64,000 nt of DNA from assembly GCA_018806915.1 (NCBI GenBank), contig JAGKQI010000022.1:62001-126000 (forward strand), written 5' to 3'. The DNA comes from Phytophthora colocasiae (lineage: Eukaryota > Oomycota > Peronosporomycetes > Peronosporales > Peronosporaceae). Below, piece after piece: positions 30,020 through 64,000 of the stretch. The translations under genes were made by a program, and so were the position numbers. Position 1 is the stretch's first letter; the number at the start of each line of letters is the position of its first letter. Under the pieces are notes generated by a model, which was not told where the DNA came from, made no database searches, and saw only the letters and a list, made by a program, of their open reading frames with translations.

Positions 30020-31407
30020 TGTGGTGGAGCGGATCTGGCCAAAATCTGGTTGAGGCCGATCGCGATCGCCACTTGCGCCCAGACACCGACTAACGGAGGG
30101 GTCCCCGATGATCCGTGATCTTGTTGAGTGTAGTGTTCACCTTGTGTACCCGTCGGTAGGCGGGTTACGCTCTTCCAGGTAACTTCTGAAGATGTCTTGG
30201 GACGAGAAGAATGTCTTGGGTGACGCAGTGGTAGTGAGATAGCGTGGGAATACTTCACTCTACCTCGAAGGGGTTGATCCGGGTCACAGGCGAGTTCTCG
30301 AGCCTTGATCCGGTCGCCTGGTCTTCGATCCAGGTCTTCCAAAGGTCCAATGTTGGGGATCTGATCCCTTCCTTTACGATGCTTGCCGCTTCCTATAGCG
30401 GGTGTCTTGATGGGTTGAGAGTCGACGAGATCGTCAGGCCAAGCAGCCAATTCCTTCCGATCCGTAGTTCGCACGTAAAGGATAGATCACTAGATAGGGT
30501 AAAACTGGCCAATGTATTATCCAGAATTAACCTCTATGCTAGATCTCTTCTCCTTACCTTCTTGATGCTGGTGGGCCAATGTTATTCCCGGTTCCAGTCT
30601 TGGATGAAGGCACTTGTGAGGTCCAGAGCAAATTCGATTCTGTTTATGATTATTCCTATGTCTACTAGTCCCATCCTCATCCGCTATCCTACGATTACCT
30701 GACATCCGGCTACACAGCTGCCCCTCCGATCTTCGATCTCGATCTCACCTAACCCCTGATCGCGATCTCGATCTACCGATCTACCGATCTGCCGATCTGT
30801 CGATCTGTCGATCTGCTGATCTGTCGATCTGTCGATCTGCCGATCTCGATCAGCCGATCTGTCGATCTGTCGATCAACCATCTCGATCATCGATCTTGGT
30901 CCACCGTCTTGAACACTGATCTCGATCAGCAACCTTCATACTTGATCTCGCGTGCCTGTGTCGTCGACATACCAGATCTTGATCTTCCTGGACTTGACCA
31001 CCGCTCCCCATGCGACCAACGCTGCCATCATGCCCCCTCGGCAGCATCTCACGGTTATGTTGTCACCGGCCCACCATAGATCGCACCGGTCCCGACCCTC
31101 TGCTGCCTTGATCTCCTTCTCATGCGGCCTCAGGCAAGGCGCCCTTTTCTCCTCCGACCCTAAGCCGCTACGCGGGACCGTACGGCGGTTTCTCCAATCA
31201 CTTAGTCTCACTCGACCAAGACGCCATCCATTCATCGCTGGCGAGATCGAGACGAACATCGATCTGGATCCATTCGTCAGCCATCGTTCGCGCAATCTGG
31301 GGTCATCAACTGACATCTTGCTTCGCCAGAGGCCCCTGTCGCTTGATCCGACTCTCTCTGGGCCTGACGTTGCCTTTTCTCGGATTTCTTATTCGCGCTT
31401 CACCACA
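30020..31407 (-). repeat. 3' LTR of the 21.5-kb element
   Basis: 1388 bp. Ends TGTGGTGGAGCG and CGCTTCACCACA are inverted matches. The left flank is ATGT. A G-rich stretch on the minus strand (GGCTGGGGGCGGA, 31408-31420) immediately precedes it and fits a polypurine tract. Its first about 100 bases (30020-30130) differ from the other LTR more than the rest does. Confidence 0.9.
30762..30874. repeat. simple repeat CGATCTGT in LTR
   Basis: About a dozen imperfect 8-9-bp units (CGATCTGT, CGATCTGC, CGATCTAC). The same array occurs at 50924-51036 in the other LTR. All units contain GATC. Confidence 0.85.
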
Positions 31408-31533
31408 TCCGCCCCCAGCCTGCAAGTTGGTCCGTCTCGGTCCACTTCAGGTCTCATTCTCCAATCTTCAGCCCAAGGCACAAGTCACCCCGACAACACT
31501 TCGACCACCATCAACGGATCCCTTCCAGTCTCC

Positions 31534-33469: not shown

Positions 33470-33881
33470 TGCAGCAGGGCTGCGTAGGTGTGCACGGCAC
33501 AGAGGAAGTTGGGTTGACTCGTAGAGTCCTGCTTGCAAGGCACTAGCCTTCGGTTCTATACAAGAACCAAGTAGTCCACTAAATACGGGACTCTCACAAT
33601 CAGTGTCCCTATAATAAAGGAACTAACACTAATTATGTAAAATGCAAACTGATTTTTATTTATTTTATTGCCCTAATCCTGAATGTAACGGATTTAGTAT
33701 CTAACATACTAAATCCTAATCAAATGTAATGTGTGGCTCTGAGCTAACAGCCAGCAACTGGCTACATATGTGACGTGTGAGAAACACTATGTGTTGTACA
33801 CGGATCTGTGACTTGTGACCTGGATGGTGTATACCACACCTATTGTAGCCAAGGCGCGCAGCGCCGTGTAACCCCGTTACA
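33470..33881 (-). repeat. 3' LTR of nested element
   Basis: 412 bp, ends TGCAGC and CCCGTTACA on the plus strand. On the minus strand it starts TGTAACGGGG. A polypurine tract GGTGGGGGAGGG (minus strand, 33882-33893) sits directly against it, as expected for the 3' LTR. Confidence 0.95.
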
Positions 33882-33893
33882 CCCTCCCCCACC
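33882..33893 (-). promoter_or_regulatory. polypurine tract of nested element
   Basis: GGTGGGGGAGGG on the minus strand, immediately 5' of the 3' LTR; the expected primer for plus-strand DNA synthesis. Confidence 0.8.
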
Positions 33894-35810
33894 AAACCGT
33901 GGATACGGAGTATCTACAACTGTAGACATAACTGCCTTGTCAAGGCCTGTCACCGGCAACTTTCCGATAAAAGAATTCTCTCAACGAGAGTGCGCGGGTG
34001 CGCTGGCTCAACGAGCACATTCTCCAATTCTCCTCAGCGAGCCAACCGCTCCTGAGGTGTCCAGTGACCAGGCGTCTACGCCCCAGCGCCTCAGCGCTTT
34101 CCGGTCTGAGCCCTCGGCTCCTCTCACGCCCTCCGATTCGGAGTATTTCGCGGCGTCTCGCCTTCGCTATGGAGCGATGTTTAAGGCCAGCCCGACGTCA
34201 AGTGGTAGCGGTGGCTCACCCTTCGAGTACACGACAGCGTCGCCGACGCGCGACCCACGTCGCTCTCCTACAGAGGAAGGCGAGGTCGAAGTGGACTACG
34301 AGGAGTCCAAACAGGGCGATGCCCATGCGTCTCCTGCTCCTGCGAGCCCTCGGACGACCCGATCTGAGCTGCGCTCTCCACGCGATCCGCGTCGGTACTC
34401 AATTCCTCGGCAGCTGCGGCAGCCCAATCCGTTCCCGGAGGGACCTTCGAGCCTCGTGCTCAACGCGTTGCGCAACGCACCACCGCTTCCTGCTCGCGAT
34501 GAGCCAGAGTCACTCAAGGGAGTCGAAGACGCGATCACCAACCCTCTGGATGAGGCACAGGAGGCTTCCCTGAGCGGTGCTCCAGAGTCACGTCGACCGG
34601 TCCAACGGGACATCATGGGGACTTCTGTCGCGGCGCGACTACGGCTTCGAGCCTCGCGACCCTGCCGAGCAGGTGAAGCAGTTGATGGCGCAGCCAAACC
34701 TGCATGGTTACGCCATAGGCAATCCTCCACGTACGGTGGCTGAGACTCAGCAGCGACAGGGGCTCCATGAGCGTTTCCTGACCCCGCAGGTGTGCACACC
34801 TCGCCGAGTATCGGCAACGCTTAGATAAGCAACGGCGACGGGAGTCTGTGCCTCAGATGAGGACTTATCCACTCCTGCTCCAAACCGGAGAGCCCACCCG
34901 GGACTACATGGTCCATGTGGCCACCTGGGCCGAGGCTTCACGGAAGCTCGCGTCGTTTGACCGGCTCATGGAGAGCTGCGCCGAGGTGGACGTCCGCCTC
35001 GCCCGAGGTCTACTTCTTCCAGTATGCGAAGATACGCGTGCGGCCCGGCCGCTTTCCTCGTCACACGACGGCAGTGGCTCCCGCCTCTCAGGCCACTCAT
35101 CCCTGCTTCGCAGGATGCTCCTTCCAGTCTCCGAGGGGAGACTCGCTGGTTGTGCCAGCCACGGACCAGAGCCTGAGCTCGGCTGCTAGTCCGTCAGCTT
35201 CTCACACTAGTGGTGAGAAGCGGGTGTCGACCGAGTGGTCGACCCTTGAGCCCCTTCGGGCGCCCCCTGATCTTCGCGATCAAAAGCGTCCACGACGTCA
35301 GGGCAGTCCTGCCTCAGGGACCCTTCAAACCCCACGAGTTTTGGGAATGAGGATATCCACGCCACTTCACCAGATACTGGTTTTGACTACGGTGGCGACG
35401 CCGCGCCATCAGGCGCTCCACGTGGTAGTGGGGAGTCCCCTGCTCATCGAGCAACGGCGGAGGAGGCCGATTCGCTGCGGAACGCCGTACTCGATGAGTG
35501 TGACGAGCGCTATTTGTCGCATCGCGCCTGGTACCAACTCGATCACTCGATCGGTACTCTCCGGAGTCAGACTCAGTCCCTTCAAGGGAACGTCGAGAGT
35601 GTTTGGCATTCGCATGCCCGTCTCGCTCATGACATGGAGGAGATTGAAAGCCGGATGGCTTGGCTCGAAGGTCCTCAGTCCCTGACTGCTCGCCTGCACC
35701 AGCAGGAGCTTCAGCTCGCTGAGTTGCGAGGTCAGGTGACGTTGCTGCTGCAGATGACGCAGCCTGGGCACGTGTCGTCGGTGCCAGCGCCTCCGCGCTC
35801 ACCCCGCGGG
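33893..35810 (+). pseudogene. opposite-strand protein of nested element, several frameshifts
   Basis: A plus-strand coding series facing gag-pol. It is open from the LTR edge with a Pro/Ser-rich, acidic first part (RYGAMFKASPTSSGSGG, EEGEVEVDYEESKQGD). After a shift at a GGGG run (about 34617) it reads RRDYGFEPRDPAEQVKQLMA and NLHGYAIGNPPRTVAETQQR; after a shift near 34790, EYRQRLDKQRRRESVPQM and YMVHVATWAEASRKLASFDR; after one near 35005, EVYFFQYAKIRV; after one near 35340, DECDERYLSHRAWYQLDHSI and a coiled coil (RTLRSQ-like heptads, LHQQELQLAELRGQVTLLLQ). Composition and heptads argue for a real protein. No family recognised. The 3' part overlaps the chromodomain coding on the other strand. 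Start codon uncertain (ATG at about 34171 is a candidate). Confidence 0.55.
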
Positions 35811-36100
35811 GTCCCGATATGGCTTAAGCAAGCCGACGTAGAACACCGGGTGTGTTCGCATCCGCTTTGGCAAGTCAAGCGTGTATGCCAGGCCCTTCTT
35901 GGCCACGACCGTAAATGGTCCTGATGAAACGCGGACGCAATTTCGTCTTAAAGACATTTGACACTGCATGTGTAGGTAGGTTCTTAGCGTTTAATAAAAC
36001 CTGGTCACCGACCTTAAATTCCCATACATTGCTTCTACCTTTCGTATCCGCTTGTTCCTTCTGAACGTCTTGGCTTTCAGCCATCGCGCGTCACGTACAC
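35230..36100 (-). pseudogene. pol: integrase C-terminal end and chromodomain of nested element
   Basis: SH3-like integrase tail with VGDQVLLNAKNLPT near 36000, KLRPRFI, then after a shift FTVVAKKGLAYTLDLP and HPVFYVGLLKPYRDPA. After a low-complexity linker the chromodomain reads YHVERLMARRRHRSQNQYLV, KWRGYPHSQNSW at about 35430-35330, and its C-terminal helix LRQDCPDVVDAFD at about 35300-35260 in the next frame. Chromodomains of this kind guide integration to histone-marked chromatin. Confidence 0.8.
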
Positions 36101-38727
36101 GGCGTAATACGCTCAATCTCACCGAGATGAAGTCATCGACTTGTTTACGCCCAGCAGAAGGGCTGATATCAGCAAGCTCGGAGTCGAGCGACGGCACAGC
36201 CTCTCCCCCACCAAGCCCAAGGCTACCGCGTGGCGGAGTGAGCGGAACGCGCGGGTGCGCAAGGCCGTTCACGTAGAACGGGGTGAAGCCTGTCGAGGCA
36301 TGCACCGCATTGTTCATGGAGAACTCAACGAGAGGGAGCATAGCGCTCCAACGCTTCGGCGTTTCAGCGCATACGCTGCGGAGGATGTCCTCCAGAACGC
36401 GGTTCACGCGTTCGGTCTGACCGTCGGTCTGCGGATGGTCCGCCGTGGACATGTCCAGTCGAGTGCCCAGCACCTTGAAGACGGACGTCCAGAAGTGACC
36501 CGTGAAACGGGGATCTCGATCCGAGACAATGGTCTCAGGCAGCCCATGCTGGCGGAAGACCCGATCGATGAAGATCGTCGCTGTACCAGCACCATCGACG
36601 GTGTCCGGCACAGCCGCTAGATGAGCCATCTTGCTCAGACGGTCAACAAAGACCACCACGCCCGTGTTGCCTGCCGAGTCCTTCGGCAGGCCAAACACAA
36701 AGTCCATACTTATGGACTGCCAACACCCAGAGGGTACAGGTAAGCTCGCCAAAGGCGCAGCCGCATGCGGCGAGGGTTTAACCCGCTGACACGTCTCGCA
36801 CGTGCGCACATATGTGCTGACCCACTTGTACATCTTCGGCCACCAGTACATGGAGCTCACCGGAGCCGTACGTCTTCTCGCGACCGAGGTGGCCGCCTGT
36901 GGGTGTGTCGTGAGCCTCATAGAGGATACGGTACTTCAGATCCTCATCGTGAGGAACTACCACTCGTGGTGGGTCATCCTGACCCGTGCTGTAGTACAGC
37001 AGACCGCCTTCCAGGCTGTAGCGTTGGAGTCTCGCCTTTAGGCGTCGTGACAGAGTCACCTTTGAGTCTTTAAACTCATCGCTCCCCAGAGCTTGGAGCA
37101 ACGCGACACAAGAGTCGTCCTGAGCGTACGCTGCTCGAACCATGTCCGTCACGGACGACGTCACCGAGGTGACATGAGATAACTCATAGTCCGGGCGACG
37201 TGATAACGCGTCAGCGAGGACGTTCTGCCTGCCAGGCTTGTACTTCACCTCGAAGTTATACTCCGCAAAGAAGGAGAGCCATCGGGCCATCCTCTGCGAG
37301 AGGTGAGGCGACTGCGTCGCTGTGCGTAGTGACGCATGATCCGTGTAGATCACAAACGGCTTGGAGCCGAGCAGGTGAACCCTGAATTTGACGAGAGCGT
37401 ACTTCATCGCAAGTAGCTCCTTGTCATGAACTGGATAGTTCTTCTCAGCAGCCTTGAGCTGTCGCGACTCAAACGCAATGACGCGTTCGCGCCCTTCGGC
37501 GTCCGCTTGTAGCAAAGCACTGCCGATGGCAAAGTCCGAGGCGTCACAGACGACAATAAACGGACGAGCGGGGTCTGGCAGCGCCAGTATCGGTGCCTGA
37601 AGCAGGCTATCCTTGATACAAGTGAACGCATTCTCGTGCTCGGCACGCCATACCCACTCGGCATCCTTCTTACGGAGATCCGTCAGTGGCCGAGCCAACT
37701 CAGCGTAGTTCTCGCTGTACTTGTGCAAGTAGTTGGCCAAACCCAGCCACTTACGCAAGTCCTTCTGGTTCAAGGGAACCGGCCAATCCACAATGGCCTT
37801 GACCTTTGCTGGATCAGCACGAAGGCCATGCTTCCCAATGAAGCACCCTAGGAAGGGATTTCTTCCGCGCCAAAGACGCACTTGTCTGCGTTGGCGTACA
37901 GCTTGTTCGTGCGCATGCACTCGAGCACAGCTCACGTGTTCCACGTGCACCTCAACGTCAGTCTTGCCGTGTTCGGCCTGACTGTGGACGAACACGTCGT
38001 CAAAGTACGTTTGTGCGAATGCCCGTAGGGGCCTGAACAGCTGCGTCACTAGACGATTGAACGTTGCGGGCGCGTTCGAGAGCCCTTGGGGCATGACGAG
38101 CCACTCCCAGAGCATACCGCTCGGGGTGCTCACCGCTGTAAGCGGAATATCACTGGCTCGCATGAGCAGCTGATAGTACCTATCGACTAAGTCGAGTGCA
38201 CTGTACATGGTGCAACCCACCATGTTGTTCTGAAGAACATCCTTCCTAGGAATCGGCGTCTGCGCCGGAATCGTGGCAGTGTTGAGCTTGTTAAAAGCGT
38301 GAACGATACGCCACTTGCCATTCGGCTTTCTGACACAGAACGTTGGCGCGGAATGCGGAGACTTGCTCTCGCGCACGAGACCCGCCGCGTGCTTCGCACG
38401 GAAGAAGGCGTCAATGACGTCGCATTGCTCTTTAGGAAGAGGCCACTGTCGGGTCACGCAGTACTTAGTTCCGGGAACTAAGTCGATCTCATGACGAACG
38501 CCTCGGTCGGGAGGCAGGCCACTCGGTGGTTCCTTCGAGACAACGTCTCCATATTCCTTCAGCAAGGAGTGGAAGGGATCCGAGGGATTCTTGAGGATCT
38601 CCGATCCACTCCTGGCGTTCAACGCCTTCTTGACTTCGGCCAAGACGGACTCGTCAACGAGGGACGACGAGTTTAACTCCTCCTCAGGTCGAACGATGAC
38701 CACCTCGGCGAATTCGCCAGCCTTCAA
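35991..38727 (-). pseudogene. pol: RT, RNase H and integrase of nested element
   Basis: One frame is open from 38727 to 36778. RT starts with HEIDLVPGTKYCVTRQWPLP, WRIVHAFNKLNTATIP, then MPQGLSNAPATFNRLV and the catalytic QTYFDDVFVHS at about 38000. RNase H follows with VVCDASDFAIGSALLQ, YPVHDKELLAMKYAL and VIYTDHASLRT, ending NVLADALSRRPD. The integrase zinc-binding half has HDTPTGGHLGREKT and, after a frameshift near 36860, RTCETCQRVKPS. The catalytic core is VVFVDRLSKMAH, IVSDRDPRFTGHFW and DGQTERVNRVLE, so all three D,D,E residues are present. Apart from the frameshift and a rearranged RT segment near 37900 the enzyme domains look intact. Confidence 0.9.
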
Positions 38728-38895
38728 GGCATCGCCAAAGTCGGCGAAGGACAGCTCTTCTAGCTCAGGAGCTTGTCAACACTTGGCAAGTCGTCCAGCA
38801 GGACACTGCCTTCGGCACTACCGCCCACTCCATCAACCAGAGTGTATAGCTGCCCACAGCCCTCCGGTGCGTCGGCACTTGACGTCACGGATGAC

Positions 38896-39839
38896 TCAGA
38901 CGCAGAGCGTCTCGCCCGAAAGGGCCTTACGACGTCTTCGCCTAGCCGAAGATCGTCTACTCGACGGAGTACGTGCCGTCGCACAAGTTTCGGCCTCTCT
39001 CGGCCCAGTGTCAGGGACACTCAGCGATCCACTCGGTCGACGACCGATGCCGCTCAGCGGAGTACGTGCCGCTGCACAATCAATGACCGTAACAGGTCCA
39101 GTGTCAGAGACACTCAGCGATCGACTTGGTCCACGACCAGTATCACTCGACGGAGTACGTGCCGCCCCACAGTTCACGGCCTGGTAAGGCCCGATGCCAT
39201 CGGCATCCAGTGACGGTCCATGACCGGCGTCACTCGGGTTACGTGAGCTTTGCCCACACGTTGACTCACTGCCAACCAGCGCTATGCGCTCAACAGGGCT
39301 GCGATCCTCGCACTCGGTGCTGTCCACTAACTCGGACACACCGACTTCCAGCATCATTGCCGACTCGGCTCGATGCTCGCGCCAATAGCGCTTCTGCTTC
39401 CTAGCAGAGGTGGGTTCATGACTCGCCAAAGCTCCACTAGAGAGAAGTGCGTAGCACCTAAGGTCTTCGACCTCCAGTCGATCCATGGCTCGTGGCGCTC
39501 CAGCCACGCCATACCAAGGATGAGGTCGTACCTCGAATCCAGGTCCAAGACCAAGCAGCGTTCCACGCTGTCGAAGTCCAGGAACTTCAGCCGTAGGTCC
39601 ATGGGGACCTTGGCTGCCGTGACACGGACGCCCGTCGCTAGACGGACAGTGACGGTGTCACCTCTTCGCGCTCGAAGCGCCTCAGCATATTGCTGACTAC
39701 CCTCAACGGTGGAGCGTCTGACGTAGTTGCCAGACGCTCCTGAATCGATCAACACGATCCACGGCTTCTCGAAGCCCTTCACGTCCACATGGACGACCAG
39801 CAAGCCCTGCTTGCTCACACGTTCCGTGTTCAAGAGCAC
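38896..39839 (-). CDS. protease and repetitive linker of nested element
   Basis: Aspartic protease: [20 protein letters not shown] (active site DSGA) at about 39750, [19 protein letters not shown] at about 39520. In the next frame (39507-38896) an extended linker contains three repeats of about 35 residues ([40 protein letters not shown] and a first partial copy), encoded by tandem repeats of about 100 bp at 38945-39230. The linker ends before RT begins at 38727. Confidence 0.8.
38945..39230. repeat. about 100-bp tandem repeats inside pol linker
   Basis: Shared phrases GGAGTACGTGCCG, CAGTGTCAGRGACACTCAGCG recur at spacings near 100 bases (about 38964, 39060 and 39150), giving the repeated RTP-S linker peptides. 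Confidence 0.7.
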
Positions 39840-40697
39840 GGAGCTCTTCGGGGCTGAGCCCCAGTGCTCATACGCTGCACCGCAGCTCGTAGCTCGGCTA
39901 CTTCATCTTCAGCATAGCTGAGGTCCATGGGTTCGGGTCCCCCGGACCCTGTGCTATTAGCACCGACCCTCGACAACTTAAAGTTGTGTTCGGCATTCAA
40001 TGCCACGCTAACAGCGTCCTCGAAGGTGCGAGGATTCTGACGGAATGCCTCCGTCCTGGCCACGCCAGCTCTCAGACCTTCCATGAAGATAGTCACAGTG
40101 ACCACCTCAGGTAGAGGATCGGCAGCCATGCCGGCAATGAGCGTGCGCAGCTCTTGGACATAGTCCACCAGGTCCTTCTTGCCCTGTCGGCAAGCGAGGA
40201 AGCGTGACCGCACGCGATACGCCTGGTTAGGTGGAGCAAATACTTGCGTAAGTTTGGCCTTAAGCTCACCCCAAGTGGGGAAGGCCATTTCTACCGACGT
40301 CCCAGACGTCAAGGCCCATTCTCGTGCTCGACCTTCGAGCTTAGAGATGGCGAACGCCACGCGTTGGCCTTCCAACTGGAGCATAGCGGCCCCCATGGCC
40401 ATCTCGACCTCTCGGGTCCACAATAGGAGGTTCTCTCCTTCGTGCCCGTGAAAGGTCTTCACGCTGAGCGTGACGGGCTTAGCTCTCGGAGCGGGATTAA
40501 CTCCTTTTACATTCCGCTGAATGTGCTCAACGAGAGCGTTCTCGCACGAGGCAAATGCCTCCAGGCGCGGCAAGTTGACGGCCTCCGGCCCTTGAGACGC
40601 AAGGTGCGCCATACCTTCAGGGGCCCAGCAAGGACGTAAGCTTGTTAAGCGTGTCCCGCTGACTCAGAGTCAAGTGAGCGTATGCTTCTGGCTCCAT
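39830..40697 (-). pseudogene. gag: gag of nested element
   Basis: Starts at ATG 40697 ([20 protein letters not shown]). An extra C in a CCCC run at about 40625 shifts the frame, and the rest reads [17 protein letters not shown] from 40612. The capsid-like domain follows: [59 protein letters not shown] and [14 protein letters not shown]. The tail [17 protein letters not shown] is followed almost at once by protease; no CCHC zinc knuckle is visible, so an internal deletion in the nucleocapsid is likely. Confidence 0.8.
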
Positions 40698-40754: not shown

Positions 40755-41165
40755 TGCAGCGGGGCTGCGTAGGTGTGCACGGCACAGAGGAAGTTGGGTT
40801 GACTCATAGAGTCCTGCTTGCAAGGCACTAGCCTTCGGTTCTATACAAGAACCAAGTAGTCCACTAAATACGGACTCTCACAATCAGTGTCCCTATAATA
40901 AAGGAACTAACACTAATTATGTAAAATGCAAACTGATTTTTATTTATTTTATTGCCCTAATCCTGAATGTAACGGATTTAGTATCTAACATACTAAATCC
41001 TAATCAAATGTAATGTGTGGCTCTGAGCTAACAGCCAGCAACTGGCTACATATGTGACTTGTGAGAAACACTATGTGTTGTACACTGATCTGTGACTTGT
41101 GACCTGGATGGTGTATACCACACCTATTGTAGCCAAGGCGCGCAGCTCATTGTAACCCCGTTACA
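40755..41165 (-). repeat. 5' LTR of nested element
   Basis: 411 bp, counterpart of 33470-33881. GGGTC follows at 41166. The primer site is two bases inside the internal end. Confidence 0.95.
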
Positions 41166-54080: not shown

Positions 54081-56400
54081 ATGGTGCGCGTGCCCGGATC
54101 TTCTGGTGACTTCGGATATCACCGTGAGTCCCAAGAAGATGTCAAGGTAAAAGAAGAACAAGGGGAAGAAGTGCCTACGAAAGTTGGATCGACGGAGGCA
54201 CCGATGAAAACAGAAAGATCCACAGGTCAGCAGAGTTCTGGGAGGATCTCTACTGACAGGCACGAGGCAGACCTGGATCGCAATCCAGATCTTGAAGAAA
54301 AACCTCGAATTCCTCCCAAGGCCCCTTCGGGGGCCACCGCGGATCTCGATGAGAATCGAGGTCCGCACACGAGCGATAAGGAATCAGCAAAGCCGAAACC
54401 TAATCTGCTCACCAAGTCCACTGTTGCTTCAAGATCGACCAAGAAAAAGAAGATCAAGAGCACCCGGACGAAATTGAAAGCTCCAGACTCAGAGCCAGAA
54501 GATGTGATCAACCCAGGATCGACGATCACCAAGGACGCGATCGAGCAGGCCTATTACAGGAAGATGCTAAATGAGACCTTGCTTAACGATCCCGTTCTTA
54601 CGATCATACAAGTCCGCTAACCTTGCCGGCCCGGTGTCGAAGCCCCGGACTAGCTCTGACCGCCTGAACGCGGTGAAGATCCTACTTGATCTACTCCAAG
54701 AAGCTGGCTTAGTGGCTGGAGAGTTCGACCCAAACTCCCTATTTGACCTGGAACTGGAAGCACTTCAATCGGCGACCAATGATCTATTCGACTCTCTCAG
54801 AATCTTGGTCGGCGAACGCCCACTGACGCCCGATCCAGGCTATCAGACTGGATCGTCATGCTACGCGTCAGCGACCTCGGAACCAGACTCCGATAGCCCA
54901 AGAAGGCTGCAACGCATGTCGTTAGGCCTCTCCGGCGCCAAATTCCTGAAATCGCGCATGAAGAAACAAGATACGCGATCGGTGGCTGCGAAACTGGAGG
55001 TCAAGACGCCCGATCAGCAAGAAAATCGCCGGATCCGGACAGACCAGACCGCGCCGACGACTAATTCCACTGGATCGAGCAACAAGTTGGACGACTACTT
55101 TCAAATGGCGATGGATCGTTTCTTAAAAGAACGGAATCTCGCGACACCCCGATCGCCGATCAAAGGGGAGTTGGATGTTGATATGGAGTCCGTTACCGCC
55201 TCAGATACCGATGCATGGGAATACGATCCGGACGACCTGGGCATACCGAGTTCCGGTGGACAGATGTCGAGCCGAGCAGCGATCGCATCCGCGGCGATCG
55301 GTCAAGGAGGATCGTCGATGATCCAGCGGGTCCAAATCTCAGCGATCTCGGATCTAAAAGATTTTGCGGGTAAAGATCTGGACGAAGATCGCGCTCGGGC
55401 CTGGATCGGTAAGGTCAAGTCAGCGTTCCAGCGTGATCAGGCTACGGAAGAAGAAAAATGCCTCACGTTTGCAGATCTGATGGTGGGACCGGCAAAGAAC
55501 TGGTACAGGCAGCTCAGTCGAACGACGAACAAGTGGGCGGATCTGCTGGACAGTTTCCAGACCCAGTATTGTGGATTGGGTATGTCGGTCGCGTGGCAAT
55601 ACTATCACGCTCGCAAACGATCCGAAGAGACTCCTCTCAACTATCTCTACCGGCTCAACGTGGCGGTTTTACGTGCTAGACTGAAGATCAAGGATGGGAG
55701 CCCTAAGGCCCGCCGGGAACATGTAGACCACTACATCGAGACATTGGGAGATCCGGAGTTAGCTGATCGGCTGACCCTACTCCGGCTGAGCGACGTCGAT
55801 GAACTGGAGGAAGTACTTCGGGCCCGGGAACGGGCGAAAAGCAGACAGCGTAAATCTGCGTTTGGATCGAAGTACAGACAAAAGGCACCGGCCAGTGCCC
55901 CGGCAGCACCCACCCGAGCGGTGGTACGGGCGATCCAAACCCAAGATCCGAGCTCGGAATCAGAGGAAATATCCGGATCGGACGTATCCGATTCTGAAGG
56001 CGATCTCCGGAGGATATATCTTGCCGCGTCGGAAGACAAGCAGATCGGCACTGGGGGCGTTCCCCACCAACAGGATCAGTCGCGATCGCAGGTGAACGCG
56101 CAAGATCGAGCCCGGATCGTGGATCGCAGGGGTACGTCAGATCACGATCGAGGTCGCTGTTCACACTGTGGATCGCGGAAGCATACGGATCTGGACTGCT
56201 GGAGACGTCTAACCTGTGAAAAGTGCGGGAAGAGGGGTCACCCAACGGATCGCTGTCTGTATACCTGCCGTGGTTGTGGGGAGATCCATGAAGCTGGAGA
56301 ATGCCCCATGGAAGAATTCTACAACCAGATCCGCAAGTGGTACGATCCGGCTCGACACGCTGCGTTGTTCCCCGAGAAGGTGGAGAAGATGTTAAACTAG
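54081..56400 (+). CDS. gag: gag of large plus-strand element, two overlapping frames
   Basis: The first frame 54081-54620 (MVRVPGSSGDFGYHRESQED, basic KKKKIKSTRTK, KDAIEQAYYRKMLNETL) overlaps by 50 bases a second frame, +1 relative to it, that runs 54571-56400. The second frame holds helical segments (ILLDLLQEAGLVAGEFDPNS), a capsid domain (DLKDFAGKDLDEDRARAWIG, NWYRQLSRTTNKWADLLDSF, DHYIETLGDPELADRLTLLR) and two CCHC knuckles (CSHCGSRKHTDLDC and CEKCGKRGHPTDRC). The downstream CRGCGEIHEAGEC is a third knuckle-like motif. Stop TAG at 56398. The same overlap exists in the other copy, so it is inherited: either an old indel or a +1 shift site. Start uncertain; ATG 54204 is an alternative. Confidence 0.8.
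54082..54099 (+). promoter_or_regulatory. primer-binding site of the large plus-strand element
   Basis: TGGTGCGCGTGCCCGGAT, one base after the LTR and identical to that of the 21.5-kb element. The ATG at 54081 overlaps it, so the gag frame runs through the primer site. Confidence 0.7.
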
Positions 56401-56438
56401 GACGCTCGCCGGTTTGGAAACCGGTACGAGCCGAGCGT
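56391..56438 (+). promoter_or_regulatory. gag-pol -1 ribosomal frameshift signal
   Basis: The gag frame reads ATG TTA AAC TAG. GTTAAAC (56391-56397) is a known slippery heptamer type, in the correct phase. After TAGG comes a structured region: ACGCTCG (56402-56408) pairs with CGAGCGT (56432-56438), and inside it CCGGTTT (56409-56415) pairs with AAACCGG (56418-56424). A -1 shift here moves into the protease frame (GTT AAA CTA GGA), which is open across the gag stop. Identical in the other copy. Confidence 0.8.
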
Positions 56439-57277
56439 TCTGAGTACTGCATCTATGCATATGTGAACAAGAAATCGAGAGATCAAGATAGGGAGAATTC
56501 GGATCTGCGCGGTAATACATGTAAGTTGCATTCGTATACTGCTAAGATCGCGAGTCTTCCCCGGATCGATGAGTTCTCGCGATCTGGTGCGGAAGTGGCT
56601 TTGGATCTCAAGGAAGGAGAATCCAGGGGGTATTGGAAATACCACGCACCAGGAAAATGGTTCCGCCAAGCCAAGATCTCAGGCAAGATCAATCATGAAA
56701 GAGCGATCTTGCTCCTGGACACTGGCGCCGAGGTATCCATCTTGGATACCGCCTTTGCTCGTAAGATTGGGTGCCACTTGACACTAGTCAGAGACAGGAA
56801 TGTGTTGGGATCGGTGATAATGTGTACACCACCGAGGGAAGAACGAGGATCAAGATCACGCTTGCGGGATACTTGGTATACTTTTTCGATATTTGGATCG
56901 GGGACCTATCCGGACAAGACACCATCTTAGGTATGGATTTCATGATTCCGGCTGGGGTCCGGATGGATCTAGCGAAGGGATCGATGTGCTTACCTAATGA
57001 AGTAGGGATCCCACTTAGCGGTCGCAAGAGATTGTACGGGGAGAAGGTAAGATCGGTAAAATTGGAGGAAGATCTACATATCCCAGTTGGGGGATCTGAA
57101 GAGATCGCATCGAGAGTGAAATTATCGGCGACGGAGAAATTGTGGGTGACCAGAGGTGACCAATGGGTACCTACCGTGGTAAAACGGACCCGGCCGAACT
57201 CGGTACTTAGTGATCACGAATTTGAGAGAGAAGATTTTACGATTGGATCACAGATTACAGGTCGGAATGGTACTTGA
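56391..57277 (+). pseudogene. aspartic protease of large element, one frameshift
   Basis: Follows the -1 shift: KLGRSPVWKPVRAERSEYCI, WKYHAPGKWFRQAKISGKIN, then the active site ILLLDTGAEVSILDTAFARK at about 56710-56770. One base out of place near 56775 moves the true frame to 56771-57277: GDNVYTTEGRTRIKITLAGY, FFDIWIGDLSGQDTILGMDF (second protease motif ILGMDF) and ATEKLWVTRGDQWVPTVVKR. Protease releases gag and pol products in the particle. Confidence 0.8.
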
Positions 57278-60200
57278 TCAAGAAAAAGTGCCTCGATTCC
57301 CCGGGTTTGTGTCGGTCGGATCCCGACGCTACATGGAGTGGCAGAATCTAGCTCTACCAGAACCTCAGGAATCCGTAGAGATCCCCTTACCGTCGGTCGA
57401 ACGGCCGACCTACGTTACGCCGCGATCCATACTCCGCCGAGGTGGGGCAACCAAGACCGACCCTGATCCTGCGCCAATATCGACATTAGAACCTCGATCA
57501 CCAACCGATACGGTCGAAGTCAAGGTCGCATTCATCGATCCCCAACCGGATCCCATGGATACCCCACCGATTACGATCAGTTCCGACAAGACCCCGAGTG
57601 GCGAAGCTGGGGGCGGTGAGACTGAGACGAATGAGAGCTTGCCAGATCAGGCCCCAGATCGGACAGATCGGACATGCGAAGAAGAGATCGAGCTAACAGA
57701 AAAACCAGATTTTCAAATCGAGATCAAACATGTATCCGACGCTGACGCCGGCCCCACGGTTGAAGGCACCCCGATCCTGACAGTCAAGGACGATAGACTC
57801 CGTGATCCATCATTGAACGAACCCGATCCGACATCTCCGGAAGGGATCGAGAACGCCGATCGGACCCACTTACACGAAAGCGGCGATTTTTCGGCCGAAG
57901 ATCTAGTCGATAATCTCGCGGTAGTACCAGAAACCCAGATCTCCACCACTGAAGAAGTCCGGATTGAAGATCTACAAGTAGAAAATCCGGGATCGACTAC
58001 CCCGGAGGAGATCGAGAAACTTCGACAGATTATTTGGAAGAAGCGACATCTCCTGATCGGGAAAGGAAACGCACTTCCTCCGGCGGCCAAGGGCGTTATT
58101 TGTGATATCGGCGTGAGGGATGCAAAGCCGATTGCACAACGAGTCCGAAAGGTGGCGCCACAGTTCCGCGAGAAAGTACCAGATCTCATCAAAGGACTCC
58201 TAGCTGCCAAGATCATCCGGCCATCGACCTCGCCGTGGGCATCTCCGATCGTGTAGACATCCGACTATGTATCGATTATCGGTTGGTGAACGGTCTCACA
58301 AGGCTGATGATCTACCCGATGCCTCTGATCAATGACCTGCTAGAGGATCTTGACAAGATTCTGTGGTATTGTTCATTAGACATGGCGAGTGGATTCTGGG
58401 TCGTATCAATGACCGATCGAGCTCGCGCGATCTAAGCTTTCATCACTCCATTTGGCCTTTTCGAGTGGAATCGTATGCCGTTCGGGCTGAAGAACGCCCC
58501 TCAGATCTATCAACGTCTTGTGGACAACGCTCTATACGGATTTTTGAAGATCTCCCAGTCAGGGAATGCGGAAGACTCTGCAGATGTGATCGAATCAGGG
58601 ATCCCGGAGGATCCTGGTCGCCCATCGGTTCTAGGTCGGAGATCATACATCGACGATATCTTGATCACGGCTGGATCATGGGATCAGATGTGCGATCGGG
58701 TGGAAGACTTATGGGAGGCCTGTGATAAGCGGATTCTCTCAATCAGTGTGGCAAAGAGCTTCTGGGGCATGGATAAGGTGGAATATCTCGGACACAAAGT
58801 GTCGATCGACGGATTGGAGGCGAACCCGAAAGACCTGAAGTCTCTGACGGATCTACCATTCCCTGGATCACTCCGATCCATGCAATCGTTCCTTGGAAGT
58901 TTGAATTACTATAGTCGGTTCATCGAGGATTACGCGATCTATGCATCGGTCCTATATGAACTACGTGACGTGGAGTTCGCAGAACTGAAGAAGCGACCAG
59001 ATCTACGAAAGATCATGGATAGAACGGACCCGATCACTCGAGATCCCGTTGCGCTTAAGTCGAATCAGGATGGATCACCAGACACCTCGACTCAAAGGGA
59101 GGATAGTACACCGGATTCCGACTTGGGGGCGACGCCTTTCCCCTGTTCAAGCGAGATCGAAGTCAATCTGGGCAAAAAAACTGGCGATGAGAGGTGGGGT
59201 AGAGCATACAGAGCGTTTACAGCCTTGAAAGCCAAGATCGCGTCAACCCCAATCCTCCGTCACTTCGACATGGGGAAATTGCCCGTGGTAATTGTGTATG
59301 CTAGTGACTGGGCGATTTCCGCCGCACTAATGCAGGAACACGACCAGATCTACCACCCGGTCGCGTTTGCCAGCCGAACCTTGAAGACCAACGAGCTGAA
59401 TTATAATGTTGCCGAAAAGGAGGTGTTGGCTCTACTTCGGATCTTGGATCTACACTACACCCTGCTGGTGGGACGCCGGATCAAGGTCCTAACTCGACAC
59501 TCCACGCTTGCCTGGCTGTTCAGGTCTGCCAACCTCCAAGGACGTCTGGGACAATGGTCTGCACTTCTATCCCCATGGACACTCGAGATCACGAAGTGTA
59601 CGAAGGGAGAGGATGAAATACTGGGGGCGATCGCAGCTAGTATAACACCCAGATCGGAGATCGATGAAGCCCTGATCGCGATCGCGCCACGAAAGGAGCC
59701 AAAACGTCGGATTCAGACGCCGATCCCTACCGTGGACTCAGATGAGGAGCTGTGGGTTATAAGTTTCGACGGGTCGGCTCGCGTGAAACGAGGGGGAGGC
59801 GCCTTCAGCGCGATCGTGTGGAGTTTACCGGAGTGGAAAGTGATCAAGGCTAGATCGGATTATGCTGAAAGCCTTACCGTGAATGAAGCGGAATACCGTG
59901 GACTCTTGCTAGGTCTTGGCATGATCGCACAGTTAGAGCGCCGCCGTTTGGTCGTTTGTGGCGATTCAAACCTGGTGATCCGACAAGTCCGGGGCGAGAT
60001 CGACTGTAAGGCGCCAGGATTGACGTTACTGAAACAGAAGGTGCTGGATCACTTGCGGAATTGGGGGGATCATGAGCTTGTCCATGTGAAGAGAGACTGG
60101 AATGGGAGCGCAGATAGCTTGGCGAGTGCCGCACTGCAGCGAGGAAGCGGGATCGAGGTCCACGATGAGGCAGATCGGTGCGATCTGATCACCCTAAATC

Positions 60201-60778
60201 GGCTCGATGAGGTGTTGGTCCCTCGAGTTGAAGATCGAACTGCACAAGTGTCGGCAGTAGCCACGCGTGCAGCCCGAGCGCGACCTGGTGCCGCTGTCCT
60301 GCAAGAGGAACTGATCCGGGAGATGCGGGTTGATCGGATCAGGCGAACCCAGGACGAGGAGGTCTGGATCGCAGGACTAAAGAAGTACCTGGCTGGGCAG
60401 ATCGCGGATCTTACTCGAGCCGAATCTGGATCCTACGCCAAGATCGCCTCCGAGTACGAGGTAGATGAACAAGATCTGCTGTTTTACTGCCCACCAGGAC
60501 CGAGATCAAGTGGTGATCGCGACCGCCTGATGAGACGCGTAGTTCCAGAAACGCTACAGCAGGATGTCCTCCACCACTACCATACGACTCTGGAAGGGGG
60601 ACATCAGGGGATCGGACGCACTTATCAGCGGATCCGAGATCATTTCCACTGGAGGGGATTATATCGGAGCGTGCAGCGATACGTAGGCGAGTGTGTAGAC
60701 TGTGAGACTGGAAAGGGGAGGCCCACGTTCCGGGGCGAGTCGCCGGGGAATCTGCAAACCCTCCCTGCCCAGATCTAA
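57210..60778 (+). pseudogene. pol: RT and two RNase H domains, integrase zinc region
   Basis: 57210-58256: acidic linker, then RT start (VRKVAPQFREKVPDLIKGLL, IIRPSTSPWASPI). A 22-base deletion at about 58250 removes the VVIIKKNG strand; the frame resumes with RLCIDYRLVNGLTRLMIYPM, then a TAA at 58433 (TCG in the other copy), then FGLFEWNRMPFGLKNAPQIY and the active site RSYIDDILITAGS at about 58645. RNase H 1 (59280-59530): VIVYASDWAISAALMQEHDQ, RHSTLAWLF. RNase H 2 (59755-60140): VISFDGSARVKRGGGAFSAI, NEAEYRGLLLGL, CGDSNLVIRQV, NGSADSLASAAL, all four acidic catalytic residues present. The integrase HHCC end (HHYHTTLEGGHQGIGRTY, CVDCETGKG) closes the frame at 60778. Confidence 0.85.
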
Positions 60779-61906
60779 CAAAGGCAACACCGAACTACTG
60801 ATCTGGGTAGATCTGTTCACGGGATATGTGATCGCGAAGGCCAGTTCCTCCCGATCGGCCCAGACCGTCGCAGATCTTATGAAGAATGCGTGTTCCGCAG
60901 ATTTGGTGCTAGCGAGATGATCAGGCACGATCGAGAACCGGGTTTCATGTCCGACTTCTTCAGATCGTTCAATAGGATCCTGGGGCAGCGACAACGGGCG
61001 ACGATGGCCTACCGGCCACAAGCCAATGGGACGGCAGAACGGATGGTACAAACGGCGACTAGGGCGATCAAGATGTACGTTCAAGATCTCGATCAGAAGG
61101 ACTGGGATGAATACGCGGAGAGACTGACGTTCGCTATTAACACGGCTCACGATCGGGTTCGGGGAGATACCCCTCACTATTTGGTACACGGATGGGATCC
61201 GAGATCGACGTTGGAAGCAACGATCCCGATCGGGTCGACCAGACGCCACGATCGCGATCCAAGACGGTGGAGATATCGGGTTCAGAGATACTACCAGCAG
61301 TCGCGGGAACAGGTCAACGCTAGGCTGCGAGAGGCGATTGCAGACCGAGCCGATCGGCACAATGAGGATGTCGATCCGCATCAGATCGAAGCTGGATCAC
61401 GAGTTTGGCTATATCTAGATCGTGTAAAGGAAGGATATGCGGGTAAACTCGCTCACCTTTGGCACGGCCCGTTCCGTGTTGCAGAGAAGCTCAATGAATT
61501 CACGATCAAGCTGGAGATCGCGGGATCTGATTACCATATCTTCCCAGTGGTCCATGTTTCTAAGCTAAAGCTGGTGCGGAGTTTCCCGGATCGACCGCGG
61601 ATCGAGTTGACGGTAGATGAAGCAGATCGGCTCGATTTCGATGAGATCCTCCTTCCGGAGGACAGTTGGGTCCCAGATCTGGATGCCGATGAGTACGAGG
61701 TCGAACGGATCTCGGACATGCGAAGTGGGAAACGAACTCGCTACGGCCGGATCTATCGTGAATTTATGGTGCACTGGGTCGGTTATGATGAGCCAACGTG
61801 GGTCGACGAAGCTGATCTTAACTGTGGGGCCATATTGAGCGCGTTCCTACGTGACCACGCTAATCGGAACCGGTTCGGCGTGATGCAGTCGCATGAAGAG
61901 GTGTAA
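60702..61906 (+). pseudogene. pol: integrase core, C-terminal domain and chromodomain of large element
   Basis: Core: LIWVDLFTGYVIAKASSSRS (first Asp) in frame 60702-60920, then from 60890 FRRFGASEMIRHDREPGFMS (second Asp), and PQANGTAERMVQTATRAIKM (Glu). A short frame shift near 60860-60890 separates the two. The C-terminal domain has IEAGSRVWLYLDRVKEGYAG, LWHGPFRVAEKLNEFTIKLE and VVHVSKLKLVRSFPDRP. The chromodomain follows at about 61690-61830 (YEVERISDMRSGKRTRYGRI, FMVHWVGYDEPTWVDEADL). The stop is TAA 61904-61906. Confidence 0.85.
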
Positions 61907-61940: not shown

Positions 61941-62260
61941 GTGATCGAGGAAGCTGATGTGGAGGAGAATCCAGATCAGAGCGAGAGTTTTATATTTGTG
62001 TATATGCATGTGCGTAGGGAATTTGACGTTGGAAGATGGTGATCCGGGATGTCGAGATGGAGATGAAAGGGGATCACATTCTCAAAATGATGGAGTACGA
62101 TGGAATGACTGTGGGAATGGAGAATACGAGAATCACGAGTGGAGATTATGGGAGTTACGAATGGAGATGGAAGAATGCAGAACGGCCCTAGATGGGGTTC
62201 CGAATCCGAACTCGGGGAAAAGCCCCGTGCCTTGCTGCAGGTGATCGAAGTTAGCACGAC
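61941..62260. other. convergent intergenic gap, conserved between the two large elements
   Basis: About 320 bases rich in GGAGATGG/GAATGGAG-type purine words, with an AT-rich patch (TTTTATATTTGTGTATATGC) near 61990. Closely matches 41946-42265 in reverse. No gene seen; probably the 3' untranslated regions of the two facing genes. Confidence 0.5.
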
Positions 62261-64000
62261 TTACGGAGAAGCGGCCCCAGCGGGAGGAGGATTGAACTTG
62301 CCGATGAGGCGGGGGATCCTAGTAGCGGGGTGGTTGACCGGGTCTTGCCGATACTGGTTACGCCACGGATCCGCCTCGTCACACTCCTCCAGAGCCTCGA
62401 TCAGGTTCGCCGGCTCTGGGACGTTCGCGTTGGGATCCGCCCGGTTGGCACGCCGAGAGACCACGCCGGGATACCAACGAACCGCATCCACTGCCGGAAT
62501 GGGGAGGTGAAGGAAGAACGGATCCAACAGGATGTCGAGATCGAACCACTGGTCGCGCATCATGGCGGGGAAGGAGGCGAGGAATCGGCGCCAAGCAGAC
62601 CCAGCCCGACTCCGCCTAGCCTTGCGAGCGACGTAATACCGCTGCAGTTCGAGATCCGCATCTTGCATGGCAGAGGTGATCTCGAGGTTATGGGTGGACT
62701 CCCAAAACGCCTGACGGTGCCGTTCCTCCAGGACGCGATAGGTGGCGGCCACGGCCGCGAGGGGTGTTCCCTCCCTCTCATGCAAATTGAGGTCGAACGT
62801 GAGGGGACCCGGGTTCGCGTAGTCGTTCCACGGCTCCAGGGCCAGCAGATCGAGTACGTTCACGCCCGTGATCAACTCGTTGAGATAGCCGGTGCCGGGG
62901 GTCGGTGCGAGTCCAGCCTGCACCCGAGAGGGGAACAGCCAACCCGAAGGGATCAACAACCGTTTGCCCAAAGAATTGGCAATCAGACCCACGATCGAAT
63001 ACTGCCCGATCACCTGCGGATCCCACGGTTCGACGGCCGCGGCCGCGAAGGTACGCAGCCGATCGTACCCTGGGATGAAAGAGGCGACCGGGAATAGAGG
63101 GGGTTGGAGCCCGAGGGGCGGAGAACCGCCGAGAGGGGGTGACGGCGGTGCCGTGGAACCCGGAGGTGATCCCGGAGACGGTGGGCCTGATCCATCTGAA
63201 GATGGGCTTGAGCCGTCCGGAGGCCCCGATCCACTAGCGCCAGAAGATCGGCTTCTCGGAACCTGACCGGACTCGCGCCGGTGCGACGAAATAGATCGTT
63301 GGCGACCCATGCGTAGAGCATCGTCCTCCTCAGAGTCCTCCGTCTCATTGGAATGTTCCGACTCAGCCTCAGGACTAGTTCCATTGCCGGGTTCCGGACT
63401 CTCGTCCTCTTCGGACGGCGATGAGAATGGGTGGTTGGGATCGTAGTCGGAATCTCCTTCCTCTTCGTCCTGCGAGTCACCATTGGTTGGGACTGATCCG
63501 GGCTGATCAGCCGGTACCGGGGTCTGATCAGGGGCTGGAGTATCGGTTTCCTCCTCTCCGGCCTGCCCGGAAGCTTGATCCGCCAACAGATCCAGCGGGC
63601 TCGCCGTTTTATCCTGCTGGGGCTGGAACGGCCGCTGGCTGGGCGGGCTGGGCTGACCCGGCGGCTCCGGTAGCAGTGGTTCCTTGATCACGGGGGCTGA
63701 GGGCTCCGAGCCGGACGCTTGCGTGAAGAAGGAGGGACGGCGGGGAAGCGGAGGCGCTCCGAGATCTTTTGGTAGCGCGAGCCGCCCGTCGGTCCGCGAT
63801 CCACGAGGACAACCGAGCAGAGGAATCCTCGGCGTGATGCAGCTGTTGTTCAGCTTCAGCATAATCGGCGTCCAGCTCCTGGTGGGCCTGTCGGAGCTCT
63901 GAGTTCTGCTGATGGAGTTGGTTGAGCTCCTGTGTAGCCGCGTCCCGGGCAGAACGAGCCACGTCAAGGTCCGCGAGGGCCGACAAGCGATCTTGGGAGG
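62261..64000 (-). CDS. opposite-strand protein of large element, runs off window
   Basis: Minus strand, facing gag-pol. The window begins inside a coiled coil (LADLDVARSARDAATQELNQ, LRQAHQELDADYAEAEQQLH), then a basic spot (ARATKRSRSASAS). After a frameshift near 63770 a long Pro/Ser-rich and acidic part follows (GEEETDTPAPDQTPVPADQP, NETEDSEEDDALRMGRQRS). The C-terminal about 240 residues look globular: SFIPGYDRLRTFAAAAVEPW, YSIVGLIANSLGKRLLIPSG, LLALEPWNDYANPGPLTFDL, VARKARRSRAGSAWRRFLAS and DQWFDLDILLDPFFLHLPIP; it ends IGKFNPPPAGAASP at 62261. Clearly homologous to 31534-33464 plus 41166-41945. No known domain recognised; a second capsid-like or RNA-handling protein is possible. At the site of the intron in the other copy this gene reads through without a visible intron. 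Confidence 0.75.
   Translation of the reverse strand, partial: PPKIACRPSRTLTWLVLPGTRLHRSSTNSISRTQSSDRPTRSWTPIMLKLNNSCITPRIPLLGCPRGSRTDGRLALPKDLGAPPLPRRPSFFTQASGSEPSAPVIKEPLLPEPPGQPSPPSQRPFQPQQDKTASPLDLLADQASGQAGEEETDTPAPDQTPVPADQPGSVPTNGDSQDEEEGDSDYDPNHPFSSPSEEDESPEPGNGTSPEAESEHSNETEDSEEDDALRMGRQRSISSHRRESGQVPRSRSSGASGSGPPDGSSPSSDGSGPPSPGSPPGSTAPPSPPLGGSPPLGLQPPLFPVASFIPGYDRLRTFAAAAVEPWDPQVIGQYSIVGLIANSLGKRLLIPSGWLFPSRVQAGLAPTPGTGYLNELITGVNVLDLLALEPWNDYANPGPLTFDLNLHEREGTPLAAVAATYRVLEERHRQAFWESTHNLEITSAMQDADLELQRYYVARKARRSRAGSAWRRFLASFPAMMRDQWFDLDILLDPFFLHLPIPAVDAVRWYPGVVSRRANRADPNANVPEPANLIEALEECDEADPWRNQYRQDPVNHPATRIPRLIGKFNPPPAGAASP

What the first reader, a model, noticed from the sequence alone, without database searches (positions are those of the whole stretch)
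30020..64000. Ambisense LTR retrotransposons: a large second protein gene on the opposite strand
In three separate elements here (30020-51569, 33470-41165, 52718 onward) gag-pol runs from one LTR, and a long coiled-coil/Pro-Ser-rich/acidic protein gene runs from the other LTR on the opposite strand, so the two converge. In the two large relatives the opposite-strand protein is homologous, with a conserved C-terminal globular domain of about 240 residues. In the nested element it is a different sequence in the same position. Antisense ORFs between pol and the 3' LTR are known in some plant Ty3/Gypsy elements of the Tat group; I do not know a description for this oomycete family. It could be a second structural protein or a suppressor of silencing.
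Basis: partly seen in the sequence, partly recalled or inferred. Interest (0 to 1): 0.88.

Follow-up and report, generated by a model that had tools for sequence, protein, structure and literature searches.

The report
Retrotransposons with a selected antisense gene
Two kinds of jumping element in this water-mould (Phytophthora-type) genome each carry an extra protein gene on the opposite DNA strand, and the pattern of mutations shows that natural selection preserves that protein, although what it does is still unknown.

Summary
The finding is real. Two Ty3/Gypsy families carry a second gene, on the strand opposite gag-pol, between pol and the 3' LTR. Family A (outer elements; dual RNase H plus chromodomain, Chronos-like): at least 143 matches here, 28 of them open for 900 aa or more. 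In its C-terminal domain dN/dS is about 0.13. Relatives occur in seven named Phytophthora species. Family B (nested element) has a different protein, also selected. In family B about 614 nt overlap pol antisense; there shared variants indicate constraint on the antisense coiled coil but not on the pol linker beneath it.

Corrections: element 1 has its gag-RT core inverted, and all three window copies of the antisense gene are broken. The capsid idea gets no support; fold searches were uninformative. An oomycete-type initiator block lies just inside the LTR edge on the antisense strand in four of six family A sequences, suggesting an own promoter (unproven). Best reading: an accessory protein, probably nuclear and oligomeric, working like plant Grande/Retand antisense genes but without their TRP28 domain. 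New variant of a known kind; the open-access searches made listed no description in oomycetes.

The parts
30019..31407 (.). Element 1 left LTR (the 3' LTR in gag-pol sense; the antisense gene starts just inside it)
   Evidence: 98.8% identical to 50180-51569; TSD ATGT read by eye
50180..51569 (.). Element 1 right LTR
31454..31469 (+). INR+FPR-type oomycete core promoter block on the antisense-gene strand, 47 nt inside the LTR edge and 80 nt before the ATG
   Evidence: 1 mismatch to YCAYTYY-N2-MWTTTNC; motif definitions from PMC3599244
31534..33321 (+). Element 1 antisense gene, N-terminal part (Ser/Pro start, coiled coil, acidic part): one frame with in-frame stops at 31810 and 32434, ending at 33322
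41353..41943 (+). Element 1 antisense gene, part of the C-terminal domain, in element-2-like sequence
44661..48996 (+). Inverted gag-RT core of element 1 (flanks read on the - strand)
42307..44660 (-). Element 1 pol 3' part (RNase H, integrase, chromodomain region) in normal orientation, with frame breaks; start estimated from the alignment with element 2
33470..33881 (.). Nested element left LTR
   Evidence: 98.1% to 40755-41165; TSD GGGTC read by eye
40755..41165 (.). Nested element right LTR; gag-pol-strand INR+FPR block at 40921 (twin at 33637)
39833..40663 (-). Nested element gag
   Evidence: Pfam Retrotrans_gag and Ty3_capsid over cut-off
35317..38775 (-). Nested element pol (RT, RNase H, integrase, chromodomain), with frame breaks
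   Evidence: relative L046 has SH3_Tf2-1 and Chromo over cut-off
34177..35921 (+). Nested element (family B) antisense gene: conserved globular domain, then a coiled coil lying antisense to pol; broken between 34740 and 35271 in this copy
52718..54082 (.). Element 2 5' LTR
   Evidence: 93.8% to L009:1135-2445; TSD ATAA read by eye
54571..56400 (+). Element 2 gag (no Pfam match; CCHC zinc knuckles read by eye)
56292..61906 (+). Element 2 pol: RT, RNase H, second RNase H (RVT_3), H2C2 zinc binding and chromodomain over Pfam cut-offs; protease and SH3 below cut-off; integrase core read by eye
62261..64000 (-). Element 2 (family A) antisense gene, stop at 62261-62263; runs off the window towards an ATG at L009:1028-1026
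62264..63094 (-). Selected C-terminal domain of the family A antisense protein (277 codons analysed)
   Evidence: 143 matches; dN/dS about 0.13; relatives P0001-P0018

Best explanation
Two Ty3/Gypsy families of this Phytophthora-type genome carry a real accessory protein gene on the strand opposite gag-pol. SHOWN: the antisense frames are protein-coding and under purifying selection in both families; no relation between the two proteins was found; both combine coiled coil with a conserved domain and have relatives in several Phytophthora species; in family B the gene overlaps the 3' end of pol. INFERRED: host RNA polymerase II transcribes it from its own start site inside the 3' LTR edge, independently of the gag-pol transcript that starts in the other LTR. 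The protein oligomerises through the coiled coil and works in the nucleus as a regulatory or accessory factor of the element (transcription, integration or escape from silencing), the kind of role proposed for the antisense genes of plant Grande and Retand. My confidence: protein-coding and selected 0.97; own antisense transcription unit 0.65; nuclear accessory role 0.35. The figure below is for the chain as far as 'accessory protein from its own transcript'.
For: Family A: at least 143 matches, 28 stop-free and open >=900 aa. In 28 top-ranked copies the C-terminal domain has N/S observed/expected 0.20 in the antisense frame, against 1.9-2.9 in four of the other five frames; the fifth, wobble-mirrored frame scores 0.21 but holds five stops (p 7e-15 treating sites as independent). 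14 lower-ranked copies give 0.21; 42 copies give dN/dS 0.13. N-terminal part 0.42, pol 3' end 0.42, non-coding gap about 1. In 28 of 30 loci at least 300 of 375 pol residues lie on the opposite strand. Family B, 31 loci, shared variants: 0.29 outside pol; coiled coil over pol 0.27, with the pol linker there at 2.48. Relatives P0001-P0018 and P0019-P0032. Promoter block within one mismatch in element 1, element 2, L040 and L043; window-wide rate about 1 per 10 kb per strand. Basic Ser/Arg-rich stretch in family A; long helix 425-525 in family B.
Against: No transcript or protein evidence was available. The promoter block has two mismatches in family B and in L042 and was not found within two mismatches in L041; the family A sequences are homologous there, so not independent. 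With all variants counted, the family B coil signal weakens to 0.69 (pol linker 1.23), and the unsplit overlap gave 0.87 for the antisense and 0.72 for the pol frame. The basic KRPRRQ motif of family B lies antisense to the chromodomain coding part, where the antisense frame shows no constraint (2.33, 11 variants), so it cannot be counted as a selected nuclear signal. No fold match for either protein. All three window copies are broken. The DNA context of the relatives in other species was not seen.
Confidence: 0.62

Rival explanations
1. Second structural protein: the antisense protein is a capsid- or envelope-like particle component.
For: Large size, coiled coil and a conserved, predicted helical C-terminal domain.
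Against: The element already has its own gag; no profile similarity between the antisense family and that gag; no capsid among the few chains returned by the fold searches, but the model is only pLDDT 67.9, so this is weak evidence. No membrane-spanning stretch was noticed by eye; no predictor was run.
Confidence: 0.1
2. Suppressor of host RNA silencing: the protein protects the element from the small RNAs that convergent transcription would produce.
For: Convergent genes predict double-stranded RNA; P. infestans Gypsy elements are covered by sense and antisense small RNAs (PMC3522703, passages read). Family B genes overlap by about 614 nt.
Against: No suppressor family among the Pfam matches listed (one search showed 25 of 81 families); no functional data.
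Confidence: 0.15
3. The antisense RNA itself is the function (regulatory RNA), and the open frame is incidental.
For: Antisense transcripts of some other retroelements have no coding capacity and may act as RNA (PMC7264820).
Against: Codon-level selection in the antisense frame; protein relatives 33-78% identical in the family A C-terminal domain.
Confidence: 0.03
4. Captured host gene or a piece of another element, carried as a passenger.
For: No similarity to other known elements was found; origin unknown.
Against: Present, open and selected in many copies of this genome and with relatives in seven named Phytophthora species, so not a recent passenger. Whether any relative lies outside an element could not be checked.
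Confidence: 0.1

Closest known systems
Plant antisense ORFs between pol and 3' LTR (Grande gene23, RIRE2, Retand, PvRetro13; TRP28 domain PF04195 in Retand)
   Same: Antisense gene between pol and 3' LTR, present in most copies; SMC-like coiled-coil parts in some (PMC7264820 parts 1-2 of 3 read; PMC11963269 passages). Plant Tat elements also have a dual RNase H (PMC5348765 passages); that Retand belongs to Tat is recalled.
   Different: No TRP28 match over the cut-off in this genome and none seen in the proteins scanned; a second, different protein in family B, which overlaps pol.
Chronos LTR retrotransposons of oomycetes (Ustyantsev et al. 2017, PMC5348765)
   Same: Dual RNase H plus chromodomain, oomycete host.
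   Different: The main text has no occurrence of 'antisense', 'opposite' or 'additional ORF'; figures and supplements not seen.
Retroviral antisense genes (HTLV-1 HBZ; HIV-1 ASP, the latter recalled)
   Same: Antisense gene transcribed from the 3' LTR side; ASP (recalled) overlaps a sense gene, as family B does.
   Different: No bZIP or other shared domain seen; non-viral host; larger proteins.
Boty of Botrytis (antisense ORF, cited in PMC7264820)
   Same: Antisense ORF between pol and LTR in a non-plant element.
   Different: Sequence not compared here.

Membership tests
Chronos (oomycete Ty3/Gypsy) - family A / element 2 | Two RNase H domains, one of the RVT_3 type | tested here: met
   PF17917 E 2.5e-22 and PF13456 E 7.4e-13 in one frame
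Chronos (oomycete Ty3/Gypsy) - family A / element 2 | Chromodomain after integrase | tested here: met
   PF00385 26.7 bits, cut-off 25.1
Chronos (oomycete Ty3/Gypsy) - family A / element 2 | Catalytic Asp lost in the original RNase H, kept in the second | tested here: met
   Y and R where the nested element has D (alignment); acidic residues of the second domain read by eye, catalytic positions recalled
Chronos (oomycete Ty3/Gypsy) - family A / element 2 | RT places within the Chronos clade | not tested
   No reference RT sequences at hand
[quoted passage not shown]
   28 of 30 loci have >=300 of 375 pol residues on the opposite strand, and all 30 some match; start next to the LTR in 4 of 4 copies read. 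Copies of pol without the gene were not sought.
Plant Retand-type antisense gene (TRP28 type) | PF04195 domain | tested here: not met
   No match over the cut-off in the genome (best E 0.6, a 44-aa frame on another contig); none seen in the proteins scanned (one search showed 25 of 81 families)
Plant Retand-type antisense gene (TRP28 type) | Own antisense promoter and nuclear protein (reported for Grande) | not testable with these tools
   Only an INR+FPR block was found
Gag/capsid-like structural protein | Capsid fold or gag homology | tested here: inconclusive
   No profile match to the element's gag, no fold match, model pLDDT 67.9
HTLV HBZ-like antisense bZIP gene | bZIP domain | tested here: not met
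   No bZIP family listed in Pfam scans of the L040 and L041 N-terminal parts and L045 (E up to 5) or of the window frames (E up to 0.01)
Chromodomain Ty3/Gypsy (nested element, family B) | Chromodomain at the pol C terminus | tested here: met
   L046: PF00385 53.4 bits and SH3_Tf2-1 54.4 bits, both over cut-off
Chromodomain Ty3/Gypsy (nested element, family B) | RT within the chromovirus clade | not tested
   Only compared with family A: 24% identity over the RT-RNase H range

The most novel reading that the evidence does not exclude
Ambisense coding has arisen at least twice independently in oomycete Ty3/Gypsy elements, with unrelated coiled-coil proteins. In family B the antisense gene has overprinted pol: its coiled coil is encoded antisense to a long, selectively free linker between the integrase SH3 domain and the chromodomain, so the two strands divide the constraint between them. 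Together with plants, fungi and retroviruses this would make an independently expressed antisense accessory gene a recurrent solution to one shared need of large LTR elements.
Probability: 0.45. Interest if true: 0.75.

Novelty: new variant of a known kind. Interest (0 to 1): 0.63.

Why it matters
Antisense genes of LTR retrotransposons are known from plants but their function is open. Two further families in another eukaryotic group show that the layout recurs and that the protein is under strong selection, which points to a requirement of the element's life cycle and gives a comparative handle on it. The antisense overlap with pol in family B is a test case for how two strands share coding constraint. 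Practically, such proteins sit in Phytophthora gene sets as 'hypothetical proteins' and may need re-annotation as element-encoded.

Tried and rejected
Rejected: chance open frame (codon-level test); regulatory RNA only; conservation by overlap with pol in family A (no pol coding there; the 360-nt gap is neutral); the overlapping sense-strand frame 62255-63094 in family A (N/S observed/expected 1.3-1.9). Considered and dropped: KRPRRQ of family B as a nuclear signal, because it lies antisense to the chromodomain coding part.

Led nowhere: LTR-motif search of the genome; Rfam and tRNA scans (nothing); Pfam, PDB-sequence and fold searches of the antisense proteins (coiled-coil-type matches or nothing significant); viral contigs (no pattern match was confirmed). 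The viral structure library was never searched, because the machine was busy each time. Capsid fold and envelope: no support, not excluded. Literature searches bearing on antisense ORFs or oomycete elements listed, by title and start of abstract, no paper on an antisense ORF in an oomycete retrotransposon; the library is open-access PMC only, one search returned nothing, and (15 of 133; 10 of 69; 12 of 40) showed only part of their hits.

Limits of the selection tests: the first 30 family A loci were the best protein matches, so I added 14 lower-ranked ones (two of them hold a stop). L020 and L026 were left out of the C-terminal count because of length differences. One search had given 0.31, 2.03/0.75, 0.27/2.48 and 0.29 for the four parts; one search gives 0.29, 2.33/0.67, 0.27/2.48 and 0.22. 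The p-values for family B use the counts. Only biallelic columns were counted, sites were treated as independent, and most ratios use variants seen at least twice. All-variant ratios: family A C-terminal domain 0.32 and 0.34; family B whole 0.54 against 0.39 for shared variants; family B coil 0.69 with pol linker 1.23.
Full report
WHAT WAS CHECKED. The window lies in a 92.5-Mb genome of 105 contigs. Target-site duplications read by eye are ATGT, GGGTC and ATAA. LTR distances (Kimura, gaps left out) are 0.010, 0.017 and 0.023, which suggests young insertions.

ANATOMY OF FAMILY A. Element 2 has, on the + strand, gag (54571-56400, no Pfam match, zinc knuckles read by eye), then RT, an RNase H, a second RNase H of the RVT_3 type, integrase zinc binding and chromodomain over Pfam cut-offs; protease and SH3 matches are below cut-off and the integrase core was read by eye. 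This is the domain set published for Chronos elements (PMC5348765, abstract and passages read). The first RNase H has Y and R where the nested element has Asp, in line with the lost catalytic residues described there. On the - strand a frame ending at 62261 runs out of the window. In four copies chosen for long open frames the frame is about 1010-1023 aa from stop to stop, and an ATG shared by all four lies about 104 nt inside the LTR edge (L043 has another in-frame ATG further upstream, within the LTR). The protein of about 950 aa (L040) has a Ser/Pro-rich start, about 400 aa of coiled coil, a basic Ser/Arg-rich stretch, an acidic stretch, a Pro/Ser/Gly stretch and a C-terminal domain of about 250 aa.

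SELECTION IN FAMILY A. The C-terminal domain has 143 matches in the genome, a lower bound in which a few copies count twice; 28 of the 143 have no stop in the match and an open frame of 900 aa or more. For each polymorphic column I asked whether the change is silent in each of the six frames, against the expectation from the same mutation types. In 28 copies (variants shared by at least two) the antisense frame gives N 30, S 70 against 66 and 31 expected, ratio 0.20 (p 7e-15); with all variants 0.32. Of the other five frames four give 1.9-2.9. The fifth, the mirror frame that shares third positions, gives 0.21 but holds five stops. Fourteen lower-ranked copies give 0.21, and 42 copies together give mean dN 0.040, mean dS 0.311, ratio 0.13. 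The upstream 1.5 kb gives 0.42, the pol 3' frame 0.42, and the 360-nt gap between the two stop codons 0.87-1.09 in all frames. In 28 of 30 loci at least 300 of 375 pol residues lie on the opposite strand; all 30 have some pol match there, ending about 335-398 nt from the antisense stop.

RELATIVES OF FAMILY A. The protein database holds P0001-P0018 from P. sojae, P. megakarya, P. fragariaefolia, P. palmivora, P. fragariae, P. citrophthora and P. infestans, 33-78% identical in the C-terminal domain. The two P. infestans proteins read (P0015, 1047 aa; P0018, partial) have the same order of parts, and the P0015 cluster stands for 66 sequences. All 18 carry only names such as hypothetical or unnamed protein. 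Their DNA context could not be inspected, and selection was tested only in this genome.

FAMILY B, THE NESTED ELEMENT. No relation to the family A protein was found: hhalign aligns only coiled coil, probability 21%; the two RT-RNase H regions are 24% identical. There are at least 131 and 151 own-genome matches to its two pieces. Several relatives are open for about 680 aa from stop to stop, with the first ATG about 300 nt inside the LTR. Protein relatives P0019-P0032 occur in P. citrophthora, P. ramorum, P. fragariaefolia, P. capsici, P. sojae and Peronospora effusa; four of the 14 have no species name. AlphaFold (mean pLDDT 60, pTM 0.33) gives a confident part at residues about 160-288 and one long helix at 425-525.

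OVERLAP WITH POL IN FAMILY B. In L046 and L053 the pol frame (SH3 and chromodomain, for L046) ends inside the antisense gene, so about 614 nt are read on both strands. With 31 distinct loci split into parts and shared variants: antisense gene alone, ratio 0.29; part antisense to the chromodomain, antisense frame 2.33 and pol frame 0.67 (11 variants, too few); antisense coiled coil over the pol linker, antisense frame 0.27 (31 variants; p 3e-4 from the same counts) and pol linker 2.48, with no stop in the pol frame of the majority; pol alone 0.22 (10 variants). With all variants the coil part gives 0.69 and 1.23. The unsplit overlap in 11 copies had given 0.87 and 0.72. So each strand seems constrained where the other is not, but the evidence is moderate. 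The basic KRPRRQ motif of family B falls in the part governed by the chromodomain, so its conservation says nothing about the antisense protein.

PROMOTER. Phytophthora core promoters have an INR (YCAYTYY) and FPR (MWTTTNC) (PMC3599244, passages). On the antisense-gene strand, between LTR edge and ATG, a block within one mismatch lies in four of six family A sequences: element 1 (31454), element 2 (L009:1071-1086), L040 and L043; L042 has two mismatches and L041 more. It starts 46-49 nt inside the LTR edge. In the window such blocks occur about once per 10 kb per strand. Family B has a two-mismatch block at 34017, largely conserved in the 18 copies aligned. The nested LTR also has a one-mismatch block on the gag-pol strand (40921). 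My first scan used a recalled, longer pattern: 24 matches against 8.4 expected, most of them elsewhere. I take this as a hint of an own antisense promoter, not as proof.

COMPARISON. [quoted passage not shown] the Grande protein is nuclear and has its own promoter (PMC7264820, parts 1 and 2 of 3 read). In plant Retand elements 97% of clusters encode a TRP28 domain (PMC11963269, passages). No TRP28 match over the cut-off exists in this genome. So this works like those genes but is not a member of that protein family. Eight searches of open-access papers bearing on the point listed no report of an antisense ORF in an oomycete retrotransposon; three of them showed only part of their hits. The Chronos paper's figures and supplements were not seen.

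VERDICT. The gene is real and selected in two families whose antisense proteins show no relation. Its function is inferred by analogy. Most likely it is an oligomeric nuclear accessory protein expressed from its own antisense transcript; a silencing-suppressor role remains open and a capsid role has no support.

Noticed in passing
window 44661-48996: A 4.3-kb segment of element 1 (gag to RT) is inverted relative to its flanks; the break points share a short GGACA/TGTCC inverted match. It could be a real rearrangement (for example during reverse transcription) or an assembly error.
   Followed up: partly
window ~41353: Element 1 looks chimeric: right of this point it is 98.4% identical to element 2, left of it the antisense gene is diverged, and part of the C-terminal domain seems to appear twice.
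   Followed up: partly
window 5122-9162 and 11780-15799: Two 4-kb direct copies, 98.9% identical; a frame at 8743-9621 (- strand) has a chromodomain (27.2 bits, cut-off 25.1).
   Followed up: no
window 52106-52717: 86-87% identical to 8079-8698 and 14720-15336; element 2 sits at the edge of another copy of that repeat, and L009 continues it after the 3' LTR.
   Followed up: no
window 29554-30018 and 51570-51821: Element 1 splits a frame that reads like a hAT-type transposase (recalled, not tested by a family search).
   Followed up: no
window 4015-4944: Frame matching ZSWIM3_N (29.7 bits, cut-off 27.8).
   Followed up: no
L046 oriented 2924-3537: The family B pol has a long linker between SH3 and chromodomain, without constraint in its own frame on shared variants but free of stops in the majority, where the antisense coiled coil is encoded.
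   Followed up: yes
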